From IMG/VR virus record IMGVR_UViG_3300009788_005228, positions 1 through 39,693 of that record: DNA of 39,693 nucleotides; one strand, 5' to 3'. The notes below the pieces were generated by a model. That model made no database searches and had not been told where the DNA came from. It saw only the letters and a list, made by a program, of their open reading frames with translations. Made by a program: the position numbers and the translations under genes. This DNA comes from a virus. Position 1 is the first letter of the stretch; the number at the start of each line of letters is the position of its first letter. Below are positions 11,857 to 30,170 of this stretch, piece after piece.

Positions 11857-12321
11857 TTATTCGTCTACTCTTTTTCTTATATTAATAAAACTATCATTAC
11901 TGGCATCTACTGCATCAAATGAAATAATATCAGTTACTTTAGCAATACCGTTTTCGTCAACATGACCTATACATCTTGGTCGTATTACTACATAATCTTT
12001 ATCAATAAGTTCAGAAAGTATTTTACCAGATGGAGTAGCCAGTATTTCTATTTCACCCTTTATCTTACTTTTAAAAACTTTTATTTTAGTAATTTTGTGA
12101 GAAACATATTTCAAAGCAATTGAACCAAAATCATTTCTTTCTACAAGATTATTTTTATCTGTATGTAACAATTCACCAAGGGCTGTTTTGTTTTCTATTT
12201 TTAATTTGTAATCATTAATTATGTTTTCATCTATACTATCTTCTGTATATGTTCTATTATTTAAATTTTTTTTATTGAAATAAAGAAATGTTCTAGTTTT
12301 TTTATTCTTTTTATTTTTCAT
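11857..12321 (-). CDS. prohead protease gp21-like protein, catalytic serine not evident, 154 aa
   Basis: Resembles part of T4 prohead core protease gp21 (family S80): NRTYTEDSIDENIINDY followed by ALGELLHTD matches the gp21 block around NRNKRLYP...ALGELNHP, where the His is a catalytic residue; a later GEIEILATPSGKILSELI and a closing FDAVDASNDSF match the gp21 order. At the expected nucleophile segment (VSSRGLG in T4) this protein has IRPRCIG, so no serine is present. It is also shorter than gp21 (about 212 aa). It could be an inactive structural relative, a divergent Cys enzyme, or a different protein sharing the fold. It has its own TATAAATA upstream. Confidence 0.5.
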   Translation of the reverse strand: MKNKKNKKTRTFLYFNKKNLNNRTYTEDSIDENIINDYKLKIENKTALGELLHTDKNNLVERNDFGSIALKYVSHKITKIKVFKSKIKGEIEILATPSGKILSELIDKDYVVIRPRCIGHVDENGIAKVTDIISFDAVDASNDSFINIRKRVDE

Positions 12322-19478: not shown

Positions 19479-19865
19479 TTATTCGGTTGGTATTTCTTCT
19501 TCTGGTGGCATAATGCCAAACATCAGTTCTTTTTGTTTCTTTTTCTCTTTTTTATCTTTTTCAATTTCTTTATGATCTTTATCTAGTTCTTTATCAGTAT
19601 AAAATTCTAGTTTTATACTTTTATTGCCTTCTTTTTTTACAGCTTCTACTCTATATTTATCTTTGTTATCAACGATAAAATCAACAAAATCATCTCTCAA
19701 TTCTATATCTTCAGTTTTGATTAGAACCGATTTATTTTTTACGTCAACTACTTTATGTGTAAAATCAGAATCGATATCTTTTAAATCTTTTACCAATTCT
19801 TTAAGATTATTCTGTAATTCGTTATCCTTTTTTGTAAACTCTTCGTATTCTAAAAGATGTTCCAT
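19479..19865 (-). CDS. hypothetical protein, 128 aa, charged
   Basis: Unknown. The N-terminus (MEHLLEYEEFTKKDNE) resembles the leaders of the 64-aa and 238-aa proteins described here and T4 capsid-targeting peptides, but no clear L/I-x-E cleavage site follows. The middle has alternating hydrophobic strands (KSVLIKTEDIELRDDFVDFIVD); the end is a Lys/Glu-rich stretch then PPEEEIPTE. It lies 50 nt after the tail tube stop, between two terminator hairpins, so it may have its own transcript or be reached by read-through. Confidence 0.65.
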   Translation of the reverse strand: MEHLLEYEEFTKKDNELQNNLKELVKDLKDIDSDFTHKVVDVKNKSVLIKTEDIELRDDFVDFIVDNKDKYRVEAVKKEGNKSIKLEFYTDKELDKDHKEIEKDKKEKKKQKELMFGIMPPEEEIPTE

Positions 19866-20514: not shown

Positions 20515-20709
20515 TTATTTTGTAGCATTCGCTTCATCAAATTCTTTCTTAGCAGCTAATACTTCATCTACTTTAGCCTTAACCTCGTCTTCTTTCAATA
20601 CTTTAGAAAACAATGCTGTAAGTTCTTCTTCATTTAATTCAAAATCATAATTTTTAGAATTTATAGATTCTACTAAATTATATTCTTCAAATGTTAATAT
20701 TTTTTTCAT
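20515..20709 (-). CDS. small protein with capsid-targeting-like leader, 64 aa
   Basis: Begins MKKILTFEEYNLVESIN: hydrophobic/aromatic plus EE/Y, ending in L-V-E before Ser, which fits the (L/I)-x-E cleavage rule of T4 prohead protease and resembles the leader of T4 internal head proteins (MKTYQEFI). The rest is a short, acidic, Ala/Lys/Glu-rich helix. It may be a packaged internal or scaffold-type peptide, or simply a small helical tail protein; no homology recognised. Located between sheath and tube genes, just after the sheath terminator. Confidence 0.55.
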   Translation of the reverse strand: MKKILTFEEYNLVESINSKNYDFELNEEELTALFSKVLKEDEVKAKVDEVLAAKKEFDEANATK

Positions 20710-20783: not shown

Positions 20784-23700
20784 TTAAATAAATTCTCCAG
20801 TTGAAATTACACCAGTTTTAAGAATAGTTGTTCTATGAACAAGTATTTCTAAGCCTTTAACTGGTTCAACATAAGTATCTAAGATACCAATATTTTTATC
20901 AATCACTTCAGAAGTATTATTTGTTTCATCCATTATGTTTCTAAAATCATATACTCCATTATCTGCTTGTATTTGATTCATAAAATTATCTGCAAGAGTT
21001 TTAATCTCTAATCTTGTTTGAGGTGTGTTGAATTCAAAGATGAAATTCTTAAGAATTGCTTCTATACCATCTTGAAGATATATCAATACTTCTCTTACAT
21101 GTATACTTGACAATGCAGATTTGATATTTTGTTGTCCTGTTTTATTTGCAAAAATAACTATTCCAGTTCCATTTTGGAATATAATTGGATTAATACCAAA
21201 TGGTTCTAACCAATCTCTATCAATTCTATCGAAATTGTATTCAATTCCAACAACTCCTCTACCTGCAATTATGCCTCTTCTTGCACCTGCAACAATTGAC
21301 CATGGAAGAGCTGCTACATATTTATCAATAAAATTATTTGATATGTAACCTGCTGGTGGAACTGTTACGTTTCTACCTCTATCTCTTACCACTAAGTATG
21401 GTGCATAATATCCTGCAAAGTTTGAACCAGATGTGATACCTGGTAGTGTATAAAGTAAAGTTGGATTTTTTGTTAAATCTCCACCTTCTGAAATCATTTT
21501 AGTACTTACCAATCCATTTGCATCCAAGAATAATGGAGTTGTTGAATCAGAAAAGTTTTTCATAGATGGTGCATTAAGAATAGCAAAAGCATTTTGTCTT
21601 TCTTTTGCAAGATTTGCTAAAATAGCTTTTGAACTTGATTCTATACCCAATCCAAATGAATCTACAATATATCTAAATGTGATATTATCTTTATCAATTA
21701 ATGCATTGAATAATTGAGTTCCTGATAATGTATCATAAAGAATATTGTTTTGTTGATCCATTGTATTATTTGGTAAATGATATGATGTATGTGTAAATCC
21801 ATTCATTGAAGTTAATGTATAATAATCTACCCAATTTGTGATAGCATCATAAACTTCTATAGAATCTACACTTGCAATATCTTTAACAAGAACTGGACCA
21901 ACAGTTGTAACTGTTAGAACTGTTCCAGTTTTAGATATTGTAACTATTCTAGTTAATCTAGATGGTCCAGTTGTTCCACCATCATCACCAACCAAGAACA
22001 TTCCTGGAGCTAAATCAGCTTCATAATCAGTATGTACTGTTACAACATTTGCTAATGTACCTGAAGTAGCCGGTATAGTTTTATTTAAAGCTCCTTTAAG
22101 TGTTTGAACATTAAGTGTTCCAAGAGCAAGAGCAACATCACTTGAATCAAAGAATATTTCCAAATAATCATAAGCAATAGCTCCTGTAAAATCTGCAGTT
22201 TGATATGCAGTAACATTTACAACAGGAATTGAATAAGTAGTATCTGAAATTAATGATTCAGTATAACCTGCGGTATTCATAATTTTTGTACTTGTTGATA
22301 TATTGAAATCTAAGTATCCAACTTCTCCTACTTGAGCATCTCCACTACTATCAGCATCCCATACTATTCTATCTCCATCAGTTAATGTACCCAATGTATA
22401 TGCAGTATATAAACTGTTAGAATAAGATGACATGAGTGTGCTTGAAGCAGCTCCTGTAGAACTATCAACATTATAATCTATATCTCCGTAATTAACATAT
22501 TTTAAAGAATTACCTGCTAATGCACTATCAAATGCTGAATCTGTTACTCCACCAGTTGCACTGAATTCAATTAATGCAGTAGTTGCAGTAACTTGTTTTG
22601 TAATTACTGGAACAAATGTACCAGCATCACTCAAGAAATAAGAACCAAGTACTCTAGGGCTTAGTGTATTTGCTCTAAAAGTAGATGCAACAATTGCAGC
22701 ATAAAAATCTGGATTAGTTGCAATATCAATTGTCATCAAAATATTTCCAGAAGTTGCAGTTGTTGGTGATATACCAATAGTATCTGTTATTGTGTTAGAT
22801 GTAACATATGTTTGATCATATTCCAAATCTGATTTGATAGTTTCTTTATAAGAAAGAAAATCAATTGTATTTGGTTGTTCAAATTCTAGATTGTGTCCTA
22901 TTAAATCAAGACCTCCATCAATACCTGAAACAAGTGTTCCAGCATCATATGCTTCTTTATTTACTGCACAGAACATTCCTGTTTTGGGAGTATCAGCATT
23001 TATGATATCCTGTATAAATACGTTTGTTCCATTTAGATCAATAAAATCTGGTAGTAAACAACCTGTATAAGTTGCAAGATGTTTAACTTCAGTTTTTTGT
23101 AAAAACTGTTCCAATGAACTATCATTTGAATCTGCAACAGAAATTTTTCTTTTGATACCCTTTGAAGTATCAAAATAAGCTGCAAATATTGGATCAGATG
23201 CTAATCTTTCGTATGGTGTACTATCAGTAGTACTTGGACCATAATCTCCTTCTAATAAAATAACATCAATCATAAAATCAGAAATATAATCATCCTTGTG
23301 TAAATAATCTGGAATATCAGATAATCCAAACCATTCTTTAGCAGTGATATCAAAACCTGAAATTGATGATGTAGGCGCTTTTCTTACAATTACTGTAAGA
23401 GGTTTTTTACTTAAATTAACTAAATTAAATAATTTATTTCCTGATGAACTTATGTTTCCTAAAAACGATTCATCTTCTGGATACCAAAATTTTTCTCTAT
23501 TATAAAAACCTGAGAAAAGATCGGTTGCTAACACATCATTTGTTGTGGTAGCGGCAGTTGAAAATGATATATTTTCTACCATATCACCTGTATCAACATT
23601 AGTATCTAATCTCCAAAGGTTCAATGCTAAGATTGGACCTCTTTCTAATGCAGCTAAACAGGTTCTATGAAAATAAGAACCTTTTCTTTCCATAGCTCTG

Positions 23701-23894
23701 TCAATATCGCCAAACACATCAGTAAAAAATCCAGAATCAGGTACGAATACAGGAGTATTGAATGGTCCTGTTTTACTAAAACCAACTATCAATCTAATTT
23801 GTTCAGCTGGTATACTAACTGTCTGGCTTTTATCGAATGTTAATCTGTATGATCCGCTAGACTTAAGAGCCTCTATTTGTGGTATTAAAGCCAT
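20784..23894 (-). CDS. 18: tail sheath protein (T4 gp18-like), 1036 aa
   Basis: Contractile sheath subunit. The N-terminal part contains VGFSKTGPFNTPVFV and the LEQFLQ segment typical of sheath starts; the conserved C-terminal core (about 720-1036) has KYVAALPWSIVAGARRGIIA, GVVGIEYNFDRIDRDWLEPFGIN, NGTGIVIFANKT and SSIHVREVLIYLQDGIEAIL. T4 gp18 is 659 aa; the extra length lies mainly between residues 330 and 700, which is Thr/Ser/Ala-rich and beta-like and probably forms additional surface domains (inference). It has a TATAAATA 24 nt before the start and a terminator after the stop, so it may be a single-gene late unit. Located directly downstream of gp17, as in T4. Confidence 0.93.
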   Translation of the reverse strand: MALIPQIEALKSSGSYRLTFDKSQTVSIPAEQIRLIVGFSKTGPFNTPVFVPDSGFFTDVFGDIDRAMERKGSYFHRTCLAALERGPILALNLWRLDTNVDTGDMVENISFSTAATTTNDVLATDLFSGFYNREKFWYPEDESFLGNISSSGNKLFNLVNLSKKPLTVIVRKAPTSSISGFDITAKEWFGLSDIPDYLHKDDYISDFMIDVILLEGDYGPSTTDSTPYERLASDPIFAAYFDTSKGIKRKISVADSNDSSLEQFLQKTEVKHLATYTGCLLPDFIDLNGTNVFIQDIINADTPKTGMFCAVNKEAYDAGTLVSGIDGGLDLIGHNLEFEQPNTIDFLSYKETIKSDLEYDQTYVTSNTITDTIGISPTTATSGNILMTIDIATNPDFYAAIVASTFRANTLSPRVLGSYFLSDAGTFVPVITKQVTATTALIEFSATGGVTDSAFDSALAGNSLKYVNYGDIDYNVDSSTGAASSTLMSSYSNSLYTAYTLGTLTDGDRIVWDADSSGDAQVGEVGYLDFNISTSTKIMNTAGYTESLISDTTYSIPVVNVTAYQTADFTGAIAYDYLEIFFDSSDVALALGTLNVQTLKGALNKTIPATSGTLANVVTVHTDYEADLAPGMFLVGDDGGTTGPSRLTRIVTISKTGTVLTVTTVGPVLVKDIASVDSIEVYDAITNWVDYYTLTSMNGFTHTSYHLPNNTMDQQNNILYDTLSGTQLFNALIDKDNITFRYIVDSFGLGIESSSKAILANLAKERQNAFAILNAPSMKNFSDSTTPLFLDANGLVSTKMISEGGDLTKNPTLLYTLPGITSGSNFAGYYAPYLVVRDRGRNVTVPPAGYISNNFIDKYVAALPWSIVAGARRGIIAGRGVVGIEYNFDRIDRDWLEPFGINPIIFQNGTGIVIFANKTGQQNIKSALSSIHVREVLIYLQDGIEAILKNFIFEFNTPQTRLEIKTLADNFMNQIQADNGVYDFRNIMDETNNTSEVIDKNIGILDTYVEPVKGLEILVHRTTILKTGVISTGEFI

Positions 23895-24000: not shown

Positions 24001-25830
24001 CTAAAATATATCTAATTCATTTTTATCGAATTTGCTTGTATCTTGATCATTTAATAGTTCGTAAATATCGAAATACATACTACCATCCCCCTTAGTTCCT
24101 TTATCTATTTCATCTTCAATACCTTCAATTATATCATGCTCTAACAGATCCTGGATTTCTTCAATAAAATCAGAATAATCCATTGTACCAAAAAATTCAC
24201 TTACATTAATACAAGTCATTATTATATCATCATGATCTTTTAAAGCTTTATATATACCAGTTGGCATTCTCCCAAACTGTTTTGCCTCTTCTACTGTATT
24301 GTATTCTGAAATTATCATTCTATTTTCTCTAATATATTTTCTAAACTTTTGACACATTATTCCTTTGTTATCATTCTTAACTTTTAAACCGAATTTAGCA
24401 ACTTTGGAATCTATTCTGTGTTTAAATTTAACAACAAGTTCTTCATCAAATTCATTTCTTTGTGGAAATATTGTTTGTAAATTTTTAAGTAATTCACCAC
24501 CATAGTTATTCCATTCAATTATCATTTTAATGTTTTCAGCATAAAAAATATCAAAGGTTAACGTGTACAATATCTTAGAAAAATCCTCTATGTTATGTTC
24601 ATTGCTTCTAAATATTCCGACCTGTTTAAGAGCAAAGAAATCGGATATTGTTCCAGGTTGGTGTAGATGTTTAAAATTTTTTTTATCCAAAATTTCTATT
24701 TTAAAAATATTAATAATTGAATAATCCCTTAAAACACCTTCTGCTATATCAATAGAAAATGCCCAAAAATTTGTATCTTCACCAGCTTCCTCTATATCAA
24801 AACTTGGATGAAATTTTAAGAATCTTTCATACTCTATATCTATATCATCAAGTTCTGGAAAATTATGAGTGTTAAATTCTGTTTGAATTTTTTGTATTTT
24901 TTTAACTTCATCTGGACTTAAGAGAAGATTGTCACTTGATACAAACATGTTACCATACTGTCTATTAAAAGCATCTAAAGAACCAAGTGAACCAATTTCT
25001 CTATGCATCCATGCATCATCTCTATCTGGAACCTGCCACCAATCTACCCTAAAGGGTTTAAACTCATTCTTACCTTCAATAGCAGCTTTATAAATATCAT
25101 GGAATTTATTGAAACCTGAAGGTGTACTCGTTATGATAATTTTTGAAATTTTAGATGATGAAAGTGTTGGAAAAACATTTTCATAAAAACTATTCACAAA
25201 ATTTTGATGTATATGTGCAAACTCATCTAAGAATAAAAGGTGAATAGTAAAACCGATACCTGCTTTTTTAGTGGTACTTTGTGCTACTATCCTACAACCA
25301 TTATCGAATTTCATATTAAAAACATCATTCTTGACGGTTCCAGGTTTCATGAAAAATGGAAGACTTTCTAATATTACTTTTGTTTTATCAACGATTTCTC
25401 TTGTTGTTGCACCCTTATTTGAAAGTACCAATACGTTTTTATCAAAACTAAATAAAACAAACCAAGCAATATAAATAGAAGAACAAATAGTTTTACCTAT
25501 TTGTCTACTTGCTAATACAATTGAAAATCTTTCATTAACAAAATGATCTAGCATGTCTTCTTGGTAATCTCTAAGTATTATTGTTTGTAGACCTTCATCA
25601 GTCATTACAGTACAATAATTATTTGCAAAATATTTTATATCATTTATACATTTTTTCATTTCTGAAATTTCGAATTCTGTATAATCGAATATAATATTTC
25701 CTTTTCTTATTATTGGATTTCCTTCATAAAAGGGAGTCATTTTAGGTCGCTCACCAGTATCCATAGCAAGCATAAGATCTTCATATCTTTTAGTACTCCA
25801 TATTAAGGCCTCAGTCTTCTCATCAAACAT
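24001..25830 (-). CDS. 17: terminase large subunit (T4 gp17-like), 609 aa
   Basis: DNA-packaging motor: ATPase plus headful nuclease. T4 gp17 is 610 aa. ATPase motifs: ASRQIGKT Walker A (107-114), LLFLDE Walker B and catalytic Glu (198-203), TSTPSG coupling motif (234-239). The RNase H-fold nuclease half has acidic residues in FSIDIAEG (Asp361), MIIEWNNYGG (Glu439) and KDHDD (Asp534/535). The preceding gene codes for a peptidoglycan hydrolase and the one before that for a gp16-like protein, so the T4 order 16-17-18-19 is kept with an insertion. The start ATG has only TTAGGT nearby. Confidence 0.95.
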   Translation of the reverse strand: MFDEKTEALIWSTKRYEDLMLAMDTGERPKMTPFYEGNPIIRKGNIIFDYTEFEISEMKKCINDIKYFANNYCTVMTDEGLQTIILRDYQEDMLDHFVNERFSIVLASRQIGKTICSSIYIAWFVLFSFDKNVLVLSNKGATTREIVDKTKVILESLPFFMKPGTVKNDVFNMKFDNGCRIVAQSTTKKAGIGFTIHLLFLDEFAHIHQNFVNSFYENVFPTLSSSKISKIIITSTPSGFNKFHDIYKAAIEGKNEFKPFRVDWWQVPDRDDAWMHREIGSLGSLDAFNRQYGNMFVSSDNLLLSPDEVKKIQKIQTEFNTHNFPELDDIDIEYERFLKFHPSFDIEEAGEDTNFWAFSIDIAEGVLRDYSIINIFKIEILDKKNFKHLHQPGTISDFFALKQVGIFRSNEHNIEDFSKILYTLTFDIFYAENIKMIIEWNNYGGELLKNLQTIFPQRNEFDEELVVKFKHRIDSKVAKFGLKVKNDNKGIMCQKFRKYIRENRMIISEYNTVEEAKQFGRMPTGIYKALKDHDDIIMTCINVSEFFGTMDYSDFIEEIQDLLEHDIIEGIEDEIDKGTKGDGSMYFDIYELLNDQDTSKFDKNELDIF

Positions 25831-26777: not shown

Positions 26778-27452
26778 CTATTGATTTTCAGGTTCATCGG
26801 ATATATCCGTCACATCCGTTATTTCATCAATATTATTATCAGTTTTATTCTCCTTTGATTTCATTTCCTGTAGAGCTTTCATTAAATCTTTAGTTCCTCT
26901 TGTTTTTATGTTCTTATTTGAAACACTTTTGTTTCCTTTAATAGCAGGTTGACCCTGATACATCTCGTAATCTCTTCCTATTTTTTTAGCACCTTCTTCA
27001 GCTGCCATCATATACATTGTTTGACTTTTAATTATGTCCAACATTGTTTTTTGTAAACCTGCTAATACCTCAAACATCCTCGGTTCAAGTGATCCTGCAT
27101 CTATAGTATTTAATAATCTAGTCATTGCTTTTTCAGATGTTTCCATTAAATAAATCAAATTAGTTAAAGCCATCTGTTCTATTTCCATCTTAGAAGATAC
27201 ATATTCATCATTACTTATAATATCTTCAGATACATAAAATTTCAAAAGACTGTTTAAGGTTTTTTTCGCCTTACCTTCCGATCTTTTTAAAATACTATCG
27301 TATACCTGATTTGTTGTTGTTTGAGGCAATGCTTTATTTGCATCATCTGTTCCAGTTATTTCATCAGGCAGGCCTTGGGCTATCAAATCAGTTATAGATA
27401 ACCGTATTATATCTTTATCATCATTAGGTATATTACTATCGTTTTCACTCAT
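26778..27452 (-). CDS. probable terminase small subunit (T4 gp16-like), 224 aa
   Basis: DNA-recognition partner of gp17. The central region (about 85-165) is helical, with EPRMFEVLAGLQKTMLDIIKSQ, a pattern I associate with the coiled-coil core of T4-like small terminases. Both ends are charged and low-complexity: the start is Asp/Asn-rich and the tail carries KTDNNIDEITDVTDISDEPENQ-like acidic sequence, as expected for flexible arms. T4 gp16 is 164 aa. It lies two genes upstream of gp17 in the same direction. A terminator follows directly, so gp17 may depend on read-through or another promoter. Confidence 0.6.
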   Translation of the reverse strand: MSENDSNIPNDDKDIIRLSITDLIAQGLPDEITGTDDANKALPQTTTNQVYDSILKRSEGKAKKTLNSLLKFYVSEDIISNDEYVSSKMEIEQMALTNLIYLMETSEKAMTRLLNTIDAGSLEPRMFEVLAGLQKTMLDIIKSQTMYMMAAEEGAKKIGRDYEMYQGQPAIKGNKSVSNKNIKTRGTKDLMKALQEMKSKENKTDNNIDEITDVTDISDEPENQ

Positions 27453-27502: not shown

Positions 27503-28219
27503 TTATAATAAATGTAACGGTTCAAACTTATTTACAAATTCTATTTTAAATTTTTCAGTAGTATCATCAACTGTTAATAATGCAAGAAAAAATGCTCCAA
27601 GTTGGTTTTGATCTAACATAACACCTTTTTCGCTTTCTTCCATAATATCTACTCTATGAATATATTTGTTTATTCCAACCAAATCATCGCATAAAACAAT
27701 TTCATCACAATCAAATTCACCCTTGAATGGTCTTATCTTGAAATTTTCACTCAATTTATCTCCATCTATAACTATTCTAACTTCTTGACCTTTTCCGTTA
27801 AAATCCCTAGTAAATGGTACGTAATTTTTGTTTAACTTTTTATCAAAAATTGATTCTATTGAATTGTTTTCTAAAATCTTTTTGAAATTTTCTATTGTTG
27901 TAAAATAATATAAATTTCCAACTTGTTTTGATTCATTCAGTTTTTCTTTCAATTTTATAGATGATTTAAAAGGTTTAACAAATGAAGAATCTACATCTTT
28001 AAATATCTTTCCCCAATAATCATCAATAATATCGTAAAGTACTTTTGCTTTAGTAAATCTAACAGCAGATATTGTTCCATAAGAATCTTCTCTAACTATT
28101 TTCATATCATCTGCCTGTTTTGCACTAGGTATAAATATAACCTTATCATCTATCCCAAACAGACTTGGAAATTCTACCATTTCATTTATGAATTCATCAT
28201 AATCTTTTAAATATTTCAT
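27503..28219 (-). CDS. putative packaged internal head protein with ADP-ribosyltransferase-like domain, 238 aa
   Basis: N-terminus MKYLKDYDEFINE closely resembles T4 capsid-targeting leaders (MKTYQEFI-x-E) and ends in I-N-E, a gp21-type cleavage site. A second such site, L-N-E before Ser97, precedes the C-terminal domain. That domain runs LYYFTTIENFKKILENNSI, VPFTRDF, VRIVIDGDKLSENFKIRPF, then EIVLCDDLVGINKYIHRVDI; the order of YxFT, TRD and a late acidic strand recalls ADP-ribosyltransferase folds such as DarT/Alt (inference, no family match claimed). Residues 20-75 look like a small beta-barrel. In T4 the packaged Alt enzyme modifies host RNA polymerase on entry, so the combination is suggestive. 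Located in the head-packaging gene cluster. Confidence 0.5.
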   Translation of the reverse strand: MKYLKDYDEFINEMVEFPSLFGIDDKVIFIPSAKQADDMKIVREDSYGTISAVRFTKAKVLYDIIDDYWGKIFKDVDSSFVKPFKSSIKLKEKLNESKQVGNLYYFTTIENFKKILENNSIESIFDKKLNKNYVPFTRDFNGKGQEVRIVIDGDKLSENFKIRPFKGEFDCDEIVLCDDLVGINKYIHRVDIMEESEKGVMLDQNQLGAFFLALLTVDDTTEKFKIEFVNKFEPLHLL

Positions 28220-28232
28220 AATTTTCTTTTTA

Positions 28233-30170
28233 TTATCTAACTTCTGTTCTTTTTAACAATCTAATACCTGGTATACCATTATCTACCAATACATGTAAAT
28301 GAGAATCTTTAACAACATATTGAGAAAGAACTAATGATTGTTCCTCTATTTCAATAGGTACTGTAAATATTCTAATATTAGTAAGATCTATATTACAAGA
28401 TACTATTTTCCAATTCAAACTATCTGCTACTGAATAAGTTTCTGTTAATGATATTGTTTTGTTATACATATTAACCATTTCAGAACCCTTATTAAACTGA
28501 GGTGATCCTGTTATCTTATCTATGTTCCATACAAATGCACTTAATTGTTTAAATGTATTAGATAAATTAATAACTATACCATACCAATTTTCATTTGTAA
28601 ATGTTTTACCTTCTAATGATAAATCAAAGACAAAATTATTACCAGCTACCGTTATGATAAGAGCATCAATAATCAATGTGACCGCAAAATCGGTATTTCC
28701 ATAATTAAAATATTTGCATTGCTCGTACATTTTGGATTTCCCGTTTGACACTTCTCCACTGATATATATGGTATTAATTACATAGCTGTCACTATTAACC
28801 GAGGACACGGTATGCACACCATTATAATCTATGGTTCCCTTTATTCTAATAATATCACCAACACTATAACCATGATTAGCTAAAGTGAATTCTGTATTTC
28901 CATCTGTTGTTTGATTAATTTCTGTTATAAGAGAATATGAATAACTGTTAACAATATGGGGTCTTACCCAAAATGTAAATGCTCTATTTTCCATTGTAGT
29001 AAAACCCTTGTTATATTTATAAATAACAACATCTTGATCTCTGGTAACACTATTTAATTTATAATAATTTTTCGATATCACTGTAAAGTTATTTCTAATT
29101 TTTTCTTCTGAAATTATCAAGTTAGGATCTATTTGATCTCTTAAATAATCGCTATCACCTGCAGAAATTGTATTGTACTGTTCTGGTTTTCTAGCAACTG
29201 CTTCTTCAGCTACTGTTTCTTCTCCAAATACATCATTTGAACTTACTGTTATTTCATCAATTTCTTCTATTGCTTCAGGAGCATCATCGTAATATCTATC
29301 CTTTCTATCTTGGTAATCAGTTAACATTACTCTATAGTATGTAGATGCATTCAATGATTCATCTGCTTCTGCGATCGAATTAATTTCAAATACCCTTTCT
29401 ATTTCTGGAAAATAAAGATAATCTCTTTCCCCAGGTCTTGTACCTGTTCCAAATACTGTTTGAAAATGTGTTTTAACTATATGAACTTCAAACATATCTG
29501 GTGATAACAAACCATCAGGTGAAAATGCAATCTCTCTTGTTGGAAATTCGTTATCAGGAAGAACTATTTTTAAATTTTCTACACTTCTTACGTTATATAA
29601 AGAATATTCTTTTAATATGACATCTTCTGAATCTGATCTAGGATCATGCTTATAATAATTAACAGTATGACCAAAAAGATCTGAAACCAAACATGATAGT
29701 TGTTCAAGATTCTTTTTACCCTGATCCAACATATCATATGGTTTAAAAACATCATCTTCACAACAATCTGATATGATCAAATTTTCATTAGGGGCACATT
29801 CACCATCTCCACAATATTCAAGACACGGCATTTCAACAATATTTCCTTCAACTGTAACTATTTCTAATGATATAGAAATAAATTCCAATTCATTACCCGA
29901 TTCTAATGCTTCAACTTCATACTTATACTGTATCCAAAATTCATTACTAGAATCTAATGTCAATACAACAAGATTTTCATTAGTCAAAAATTCCCAATCT
30001 GAATAAGATTCATTATCAATTGACCATCTAAAATATTTGTAAAAATAATTTGCAGTATTCTCACCATTTACTACATCTTCATAAGATAAAATGTTTTCAA
30101 CATCAACGTATGGTGATGTAAGTTTTATTAATAAAATATCTCCTACATTATTTGCTATTCTTCCATCCAT
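28233..30170 (-). CDS. neck-like virion protein (gp14-type segment) with lectin-like C-terminus, 645 aa
   Basis: Apparent mosaic structural protein. Residues 1-110: beta-rich, with YFYKYFRWSIDNESYSDWEF. Residues 116-137: five Cys in a short acidic stretch. Residues about 215-290: SPDGLLSPDMFEVH then RPGERDYLYFPEIERVFEI, resembling the T4 neck protein gp14 segment with GDLIYFP...LFEI. Residues about 385-600: RAFTFWVRP and NWYGIVINLS, a concanavalin/LamG-type pattern, interrupted by a small insert with HGYSVGDIIRIKGT. T4 gp14 is only 256 aa, so this would be a gp14 relative extended by binding domains. Position upstream of gp16/gp17 matches T4 gene 14. Confidence 0.5.
   Translation of the reverse strand: MDGRIANNVGDILLIKLTSPYVDVENILSYEDVVNGENTANYFYKYFRWSIDNESYSDWEFLTNENLVVLTLDSSNEFWIQYKYEVEALESGNELEFISISLEIVTVEGNIVEMPCLEYCGDGECAPNENLIISDCCEDDVFKPYDMLDQGKKNLEQLSCLVSDLFGHTVNYYKHDPRSDSEDVILKEYSLYNVRSVENLKIVLPDNEFPTREIAFSPDGLLSPDMFEVHIVKTHFQTVFGTGTRPGERDYLYFPEIERVFEINSIAEADESLNASTYYRVMLTDYQDRKDRYYDDAPEAIEEIDEITVSSNDVFGEETVAEEAVARKPEQYNTISAGDSDYLRDQIDPNLIISEEKIRNNFTVISKNYYKLNSVTRDQDVVIYKYNKGFTTMENRAFTFWVRPHIVNSYSYSLITEINQTTDGNTEFTLANHGYSVGDIIRIKGTIDYNGVHTVSSVNSDSYVINTIYISGEVSNGKSKMYEQCKYFNYGNTDFAVTLIIDALIITVAGNNFVFDLSLEGKTFTNENWYGIVINLSNTFKQLSAFVWNIDKITGSPQFNKGSEMVNMYNKTISLTETYSVADSLNWKIVSCNIDLTNIRIFTVPIEIEEQSLVLSQYVVKDSHLHVLVDNGIPGIRLLKRTEVR

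What the first reader, a model, noticed from the sequence alone, without database searches (positions are those of the whole stretch)
27503..28219. Capsid-targeting leader on an ADP-ribosyltransferase-like protein: candidate Alt-type injected effector
Seen: MKYLKDYDEFINE at the N-terminus, closely like the T4 internal-protein leader, plus two sites fitting (L/I)-x-E cleavage (after residues 13 and 96). Known: T4 gp21 removes such leaders, and T4 Alt is packaged and modifies host RNA polymerase. Inference: the C-terminal domain (YYFTT...PFTRD...EIVLCDD) may be an ART-like enzyme delivered with DNA.
Basis: partly seen in the sequence, partly recalled or inferred. Interest (0 to 1): 0.65.

Follow-up and report, generated by a model that had tools for sequence, protein, structure and literature searches.

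The report
Leader-tagged phage protein with ART fold
A huge phage encodes, among its head genes, a protein carrying the short tag that phage T4 uses to load proteins into its capsid, fused to a virus-only relative of ADP-ribose-transferring enzymes; in this copy the key catalytic residues are altered, so it is probably an injected binding protein or weakened enzyme.

Summary
The ORF is real, and MKYLKDYDEFINE matches a portable 13-residue leader carried by at least 25 mostly unrelated proteins of the related 462-kb phage LR756500. It keeps the four residues (Y, F, I, E) that matter in the T4 capsid-targeting sequence. Residues 97-238 do have an ADP-ribosyltransferase (ART) fold, nearest to Tpt1/KptA and DarT and not to T4 Alt/ModA/ModB. 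They belong to a family with no Pfam, NCBIfam, PADLOC or PDB match; 213 relatives were found in viral contigs and none in the bacterial and archaeal genome collection. In this family an (L/I)-x-E|(A/G/S) prohead-protease-like site sits directly before the ART domain, usually closing a 10-residue leader (MIKLxDILNE|AKQVG). The window protein keeps both: the N-terminal leader and, at residues 87-96, a relic of the family's own leader. The ART His is Tyr, the Ser is Pro, and both ExE glutamates are Asp, so ordinary catalysis is unlikely. The gene fills a variable slot between head-closure and small-terminase genes. Best reading: a capsid-packaged, probably injected ART-fold protein whose activity is lost or changed. 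Packaging and processing remain unproven.

The parts
27503..28219 (-). Whole gene: 238-aa leader + middle region + ART-fold protein
   Evidence: Open frame; sits between head-closure-like and TerS-like genes
28181..28219 (-). N-terminal leader MKYLKDYDEFINE (residues 1-13), ends I-N-E|M
   Evidence: 28.0 bits against the LR756500 leader matrix, next Met in window 0.2, 0/400,000 shuffles; T4 ipII/ipIII leader comparison
27962..28180 (-). Middle region, residues 14-86; no reliable homologue or model (low pLDDT)
27932..27961 (-). Residues 87-96 SIKLKEKLNE: relic of the family's own leader (MIKLxDILNE), ends L-N-E|S with conserved SKQVG after it
   Evidence: BLAST and HMM alignments begin here; E96 97/97, L/I94 92/97, A/G/S97 95/97
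27506..27931 (-). ART-fold domain, residues 97-238
   Evidence: HMM without this protein E 2e-30; AF2 pLDDT mostly 84-95 over residues 101-190, VIA Z 10.3 to Tpt1 and 9.8 to DarT
27905..27907 (-). Tyr105 in place of the motif-I His (His in 96/97)
   Evidence: His also in the 20 relatives not selected for it in which the motif could be read
27815..27817 (-). Pro135 in place of motif-II Ser (Ser 89/97, Ala 7/97)
27704..27712 (-). Asp170-Cys-Asp172 in place of the ExE motif (E 77/97 and 93/97); Glu173 kept
28233..30170 (-). Upstream neighbour: head-closure-like protein, conserved in relatives
   Evidence: phrog_679 E 0.0014; synteny
26778..27452 (-). Downstream neighbour: small terminase-like protein, conserved in relatives
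   Evidence: phrog_445 E 0.0017; synteny
11857..12321 (-). T4 gp21-like protease homologue lacking the Ser of the S-S-R motif (IRPRCIG): probably an inactive paralogue
   Evidence: phrog_207 E 4e-18; alignment

Best explanation
The gene makes a late, head-operon protein that is loaded into the prohead by a T4-type capsid-targeting leader. The phage's gp21-like prohead protease then trims it at I-N-E|M (after residue 13) and probably also at L-N-E|S (after residue 96), and it enters the cell with the DNA. The mature part (residues 97-238) has an ART fold of the Tpt1/KptA-DarT type, and most of its family are probably NAD-dependent modifiers of nucleic acid or protein. This copy has lost the motif His and Ser and has Asp for both ExE glutamates. 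It therefore most likely works by binding (ADP-ribose, NAD, nucleic acid or a host ART/defence factor) or has a changed activity, rather than as a standard ADP-ribosyltransferase. Shown by computation: the leader, its portability, the family, the fold, the conserved site and the substitutions. Inferred: packaging, cleavage, injection, loss of catalysis and binding role.
For: Leader: at least 25 of 626 LR756500 proteins versus 1 of 1819 internal Mets (Fisher 2e-14). Cargo is unrelated: LRR, metallopeptidase-VWA, PNK 3' phosphatase. Selection is on the peptide, since third codon positions vary more and conservation stops at codon 14. The four T4 key residues are kept. Site: in relatives found without asking for it, L/I 42/42, E 42/42, A/G/S 39/42. 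The ART domain lies behind each phage's own portable leader in several lineages: MIKLxDxLxE, MKIDxLYESLLEE, MKIQLAVA and, in huge phage LR756504, MKYIKIFENF. Head context: between head-closure-like and TerS-like genes; two relatives just upstream of a major capsid gene. Fold: Foldseek E 2.6e-4 to Tpt1, VIA Z 11.6 for a typical member and 10.3 for this domain. Intact gp21-like protease in LR756500 and L079.
Against: No virion proteomics for any leader-bearing relative was found. The protease copy in the window lacks its Ser; an active one must lie outside this 39.7-kb fragment. P1' is Met at site 13. The model borrows from the family alignment, and residues 1-100 are poorly modelled. Loss of catalysis rests on one metagenomic sequence.
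Confidence: 0.55

Rival explanations
1. The leader is a sorting tag for something other than head packaging, for example a scaffold, a membrane or chaperone site, or an intracellular compartment; the proteins act inside the infected cell.
For: Tagged cargo includes a metallopeptidase-VWA gene next to a MoxR ATPase, a pair proposed to be an assembly chaperone (PMC7824862); several tagged genes lie far from head genes.
Against: Exact match to the T4 rule at all four key positions; leader ends in the protease motif; ART relatives beside head genes.
Confidence: 0.2
2. An active ART effector like T4 Alt: Tyr105, Pro135 and the Asp residues tolerate or retune catalysis.
For: Fold and most other conserved residues (K98, G101, Y104, R138, D152, G153, K155, S157, E173) are kept.
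Against: Replacement at every one of the three motif positions that are near-invariant elsewhere.
Confidence: 0.2
3. A decaying accessory gene without function in this phage.
For: Absent from all close relatives; fills a variable slot; catalytic motifs lost.
Against: 238-codon frame intact, leader and site 96 kept.
Confidence: 0.15
4. The leader conservation is a DNA or RNA element (promoter, ribosome site), not a peptide signal.
For: Some AT-rich conservation 9-14 bases upstream of the start.
Against: Codon positions 1/2/3 conserved 75/81/57%; synonymous codons mixed; upstream mean identity 38%.
Confidence: 0.03

Closest known systems
Phage T4 internal proteins IPI-III and their capsid targeting sequence (CTS)
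   Same: Short N-terminal leader with Y/F, F, I/L, E at the key positions, ending in (L/I)-x-E; portable between unrelated proteins; gp21-like protease in the lineage
   Different: 13 residues instead of 10; at least 25 carriers in one phage; packaging not shown
T4 Alt (packaged ADP-ribosyltransferase)
   Same: ART fold behind a probable packaging propeptide
   Different: No detectable sequence similarity; Tpt1/DarT-type fold; motif residues replaced in the window protein
Tpt1/KptA RNA 2'-phosphotransferase
   Same: Nearest solved fold (VIA Z 11.6 for family member, 10.3 for window domain); LYHxT motif aligns
   Different: Only the ART lobe matches; 12-27% identity for the family member; no shared family assignment
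DarT DNA ADP-ribosyltransferase
   Same: Fold, VIA Z 9.8-10.1
   Different: 11-14% identity; no PADLOC match; no antitoxin partner seen
Phage ARTs inferred to be virion-packaged (Iyer et al. 2022, PMC9503650)
   Same: ARTs in myoviruses encoded near terminase, portal and capsid genes
   Different: In the passages and term searches read, no leader, propeptide or conserved cleavage junction is described there

Membership tests
Virus-only LxE|AKQVG ART family (this work) | Detected by family HMM built without the protein | tested here: met
   E 2e-30, 103 bits; no other window ORF or shuffle scores
Virus-only LxE|AKQVG ART family (this work) | (L/I)-x-E|(A/G/S)KQVG junction before the domain | tested here: met
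   L94-N-E96|SKQVG
ART superfamily | ART fold | tested here: met
   Foldseek E 2.6e-4 (family member), VIA Z 10.3-11.6 to Tpt1
ART superfamily | Motif residues His/Arg, Ser, (E/Q)xE in this protein | tested here: not met
   Y105, P135, D170-C-D172; met in the rest of the family
T4 Alt/ModA/ModB | Sequence homology to T4 Alt, ModA, ModB | tested here: not met
   hhalign probability 0.1% with Alt and 0.4% with ModA; hmmsearch scores for Alt, ModA and ModB near 0 bits
T4 Alt | Present in virions and injected | not testable with these tools
   -
T4-type CTS (internal proteins) | Key residues Y4, F7, I8, E10 | tested here: met
   Y7, F10, I11, E13 (rule from PMC9026906)
T4-type CTS (internal proteins) | Same leader on unrelated proteins of one lineage | tested here: met
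   25/626 in LR756500, cargo
T4-type CTS (internal proteins) | Active gp21-like protease in the same genome | tested here: inconclusive
   Window copy lacks Ser; intact copy in LR756500; window genome is a fragment
T4-type CTS (internal proteins) | Leader sufficient for packaging and removed | not testable with these tools
   -
Tpt1/KptA | RNA-binding lobe and Arg-His-Arg-Arg tetrad | not tested
   Only the ART lobe aligns; the tetrad residues were not mapped
DarT | DarT/PADLOC model match | tested here: not met
   No PADLOC match at E 1
Pfam Tox-ART-HYD1 (PF15633) | Score above gathering cut-off | tested here: not met
   Relatives reach 22.2 of 25 bits; window protein no hit

The most novel reading that the evidence does not exclude
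Huge phages run a capsid-loading system on a proteome scale: one 10-13 residue leader tags some 4% of all proteins (LRR proteins, peptidase, RNA/DNA end-repair, nudix, kinase and ART-fold proteins) for packaging, trimming and injection. Within it a virus-only ART family is always released by a conserved cut before its domain, and this window carries a catalytically dead ART-fold decoy.
Probability: 0.4. Interest if true: 0.82.

Novelty: new variant of a known kind. Interest (0 to 1): 0.62.

Why it matters
Which proteins a phage injects is usually unknown. A readable N-terminal tag that predicts virion cargo from sequence would turn hundreds of orphan genes in huge phages into testable injected effectors. 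A large ART family with no database entry, linked to that tag by a conserved cleavage site, is a good first test set, and a member with broken motifs points to a binding or decoy role in NAD/ADP-ribose conflicts.

Tried and rejected
Single-protein searches of Pfam, NCBIfam, PDB sequences, phage records and IMG/VR gave nothing usable; the family was reached through one 17-residue match and then a motif pattern. The 0.06 hit in MT836427 is antisense to a glycosidase-like ORF, so chance. The Fusobacterium phage 'portal' hit to residues 18-94 (E 5e-3) was not accepted. The PTm1 gp177 hit lacks the motifs. Foldseek with the full-length window model gives no significant hit because half of it is poorly modelled; VIA-align on the same model gave the ART matches. 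Other ART families absent from the fold lists are not thereby excluded. A DNA/RNA-element origin of the leader was tested and largely rejected. Homology to Alt, ModA and ModB was tested and not found. The paper library holds none on jumbo-phage leaders among those searched.

Full report
What is there. The window is a 39,693-base viral record, apparently a fragment of a larger genome, with T4-like genes: large terminase 24001-25830, tail sheath 20784-23894, a small-terminase-like gene and a head-closure-like gene. Its nearest annotated kin by terminase is the 462-kb uncultured phage LR756500, then Tenacibaculum phages PTm1/PTm5 and phage PAU. The ORF at 27503-28219(-) is 238 codons, on the same strand as its neighbours and tightly packed between them.

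The slot is variable. Relatives that carry both flanking genes differ there: nothing in L004-L009 (gaps of 148 bp or less), a 221-aa phosphatase-like gene in L010/L011, two unrelated genes in L014/L015, and an AAA ATPase plus a metallopeptidase-VWA gene in LR756500. The window gene is in none of them. It is therefore an accessory gene inside a conserved head block.

The leader is real and portable. In LR756500 at least 25 of 626 predicted proteins start with MKY(I/L)xxYxxF(L/I/V)xE or close variants, against 0 of 73 rejected ORFs and 1 of 1819 internal methionines (Fisher 2e-14). A matrix from those leaders scores the window protein at 28.0 bits; the next Met in the window scores 0.2, and no shuffle in 400,000 reaches it. 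Conservation is at peptide level: codon positions 1, 2 and 3 are 75, 81 and 57% identical, synonymous codons are mixed, DNA upstream is only 38% identical on average, and conservation stops at codon 14. Cargo that Pfam can name includes five LRR proteins, a polynucleotide kinase 3' phosphatase and a metallopeptidase-VWA protein.

Link to T4. T4 ipII and ipIII begin MKTYQEFIAEA. The review PMC9026906 states that the first 10 residues of IPIII suffice for packaging, that residues 4 and 7 matter for targeting and 8 and 10 for processing, that Asp at 10 blocks processing but not targeting, and that gp21 cuts after (L/I)-x-E. The window leader has Y, F, I, E at the matching places. LR756500 leaders end in E or, rarely, D. 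This is strong resemblance by rule and by sequence; it is not proof of packaging.

The C-terminal family. Library searches with the protein alone found nothing. A short domain query gave one relative, whose junction EAKQVGxLYH served as a DNA pattern and gave 68 stretches. An alignment then found 213 relatives in viral contigs and none in the bacterial and archaeal genome set. A family HMM built without the window protein finds it at E 2e-30. More distant members occur in Bacillus SP-15, Dickeya JA11, Pseudomonas Lu11 and HRDY3, Alishewanella Slickus01 and huge phage LR756504. Pfam points repeatedly but below cut-off to Tox-ART-HYD1.

Fold. AlphaFold2 on a typical 141-aa member gives mean pLDDT 86.5, pTM 0.81; Foldseek's best match is yeast Tpt1 (E 2.6e-4) followed by archaeal Tpt1 and DarT; VIA-align gives Z 11.6 (2.5 A over 108 residues) to Tpt1 and 10.1 to DarT, above the bacterial ART toxins at 6-7. 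The window protein's domain is well modelled (pLDDT 84-95 over residues 101-190) and gives Z 10.3 to Tpt1 and 9.8 to DarT. Residues 1-100 are poorly modelled, and residues 14-86 have no accepted homologue.

The junction. In the 97-sequence alignment E96 is 97/97, (L/I)94 92/97 and (A/G/S)97 95/97, while residues before it vary. Because the first scan asked for E-A, I checked relatives found only by the second scan, which did not: L/I 42/42, E 42/42, A/G/S 39/42. In 53 of 101 proteins the junction lies in the first 15 residues, closing a leader such as MIKLIDILNE. The same leader starts 80 non-family ORFs in the same contigs, among them nudix, zeta-toxin-like kinase and nucleotidase-like proteins; a few of the 80 look like spurious frames (control 18 of 4346 internal Mets). 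In Slickus01, Lu11 and LR756504 the ART domain stands behind a different leader, shared with neighbours or other proteins of that kind of phage. In the window protein, homology to the family begins at residue 88: SIKLKEKLNE|SKQVG aligns with MIKLxDILNE|AKQVG. So it carries two leader-like segments, one functional-looking at the N-terminus and one internal relic that still ends in the cleavage motif. Six (L/I)-x-E sites occur in the protein against 3.2 by chance, so only the family conservation makes site 96 meaningful.

The catalytic residues. The motif-I His is present in 96 of 97 aligned sequences, in the 20 not selected for it in which the motif could be read, and in the isolates; only the window protein has Tyr. 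Motif-II Ser (89/97) is Pro. The ExE glutamates (77/97, 93/97) are both Asp; the next Glu is kept. I therefore expect ordinary ART chemistry to be lost or much changed. This is inference from residues, on one metagenomic sequence.

Protease. The window holds a gp21-like gene (11857-12321; phrog_207 E 4e-18), but alignment with T4 gp21 shows the GVSSRG segment replaced by VIRPRC; LR756500 has a similar degenerate copy and a separate intact one (GELDHP...ISSRAAG). The active enzyme of the window phage presumably lies outside the fragment.

Known versus new. Iyer et al. 2022 (PMC9503650) already infer that many phage ARTs are packaged in heads, from fusions and gene neighbourhood; T4 Alt is the prototype. 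New here, as far as the searched library goes, are the ART family itself, its conserved cut site, the portable leaders in huge and environmental phages, and a member with broken motifs.

Noticed in passing
LR756500 (L028-L051), e.g. L028:11706-12197, L037:975-1730: Thirteen proteins share a C-terminal motif ...KYEHLxNADDFG(F/L)(F/L)DN-COOH; nearly all also carry the N-terminal leader, across LRR and non-LRR proteins.
   Followed up: partly
11857-12321; LR756500 154915-155148: gp21-like protease paralogues that have lost the catalytic Ser (and His in LR756500), beside an intact copy elsewhere in LR756500: possible regulatory pseudo-proteases.
   Followed up: partly
L013-L016, L012: Large terminase gene split near residue 115-121 by about 1.1 kb, and the clamp-loader gene split near residue 105 in LR756500: probable introns or inteins.
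   Followed up: no
L210 (Pseudomonas phage Lu11 154097-162492): A leader MKIQLAVA or close variants starts unrelated proteins, including a topoisomerase I-like protein and three ART-family paralogues.
   Followed up: no
L208 (Alishewanella phage Slickus01): Five clustered ART-family paralogues, each with MKIDxLYESLLEE-type leader shared by unrelated neighbours.
   Followed up: no
L131:3323-6247, L098:5752-8319, L074:631-4077: Long proteins combining cytidylyltransferase-like, ART, DUF6934 or nucleotidase-like domains, with the (L/I)xE|AKQVG junction before the ART domain: polyvalent proteins perhaps cut into parts.
   Followed up: partly
19479-19865 and 20515-20709: Two more window ORFs start with weaker leader-like sequences (MEHLLEYEEFTKK, MKKILTFEEYNLVES); the first has an LR756500 homologue with MKNILSLEDYIIES.
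   Followed up: partly
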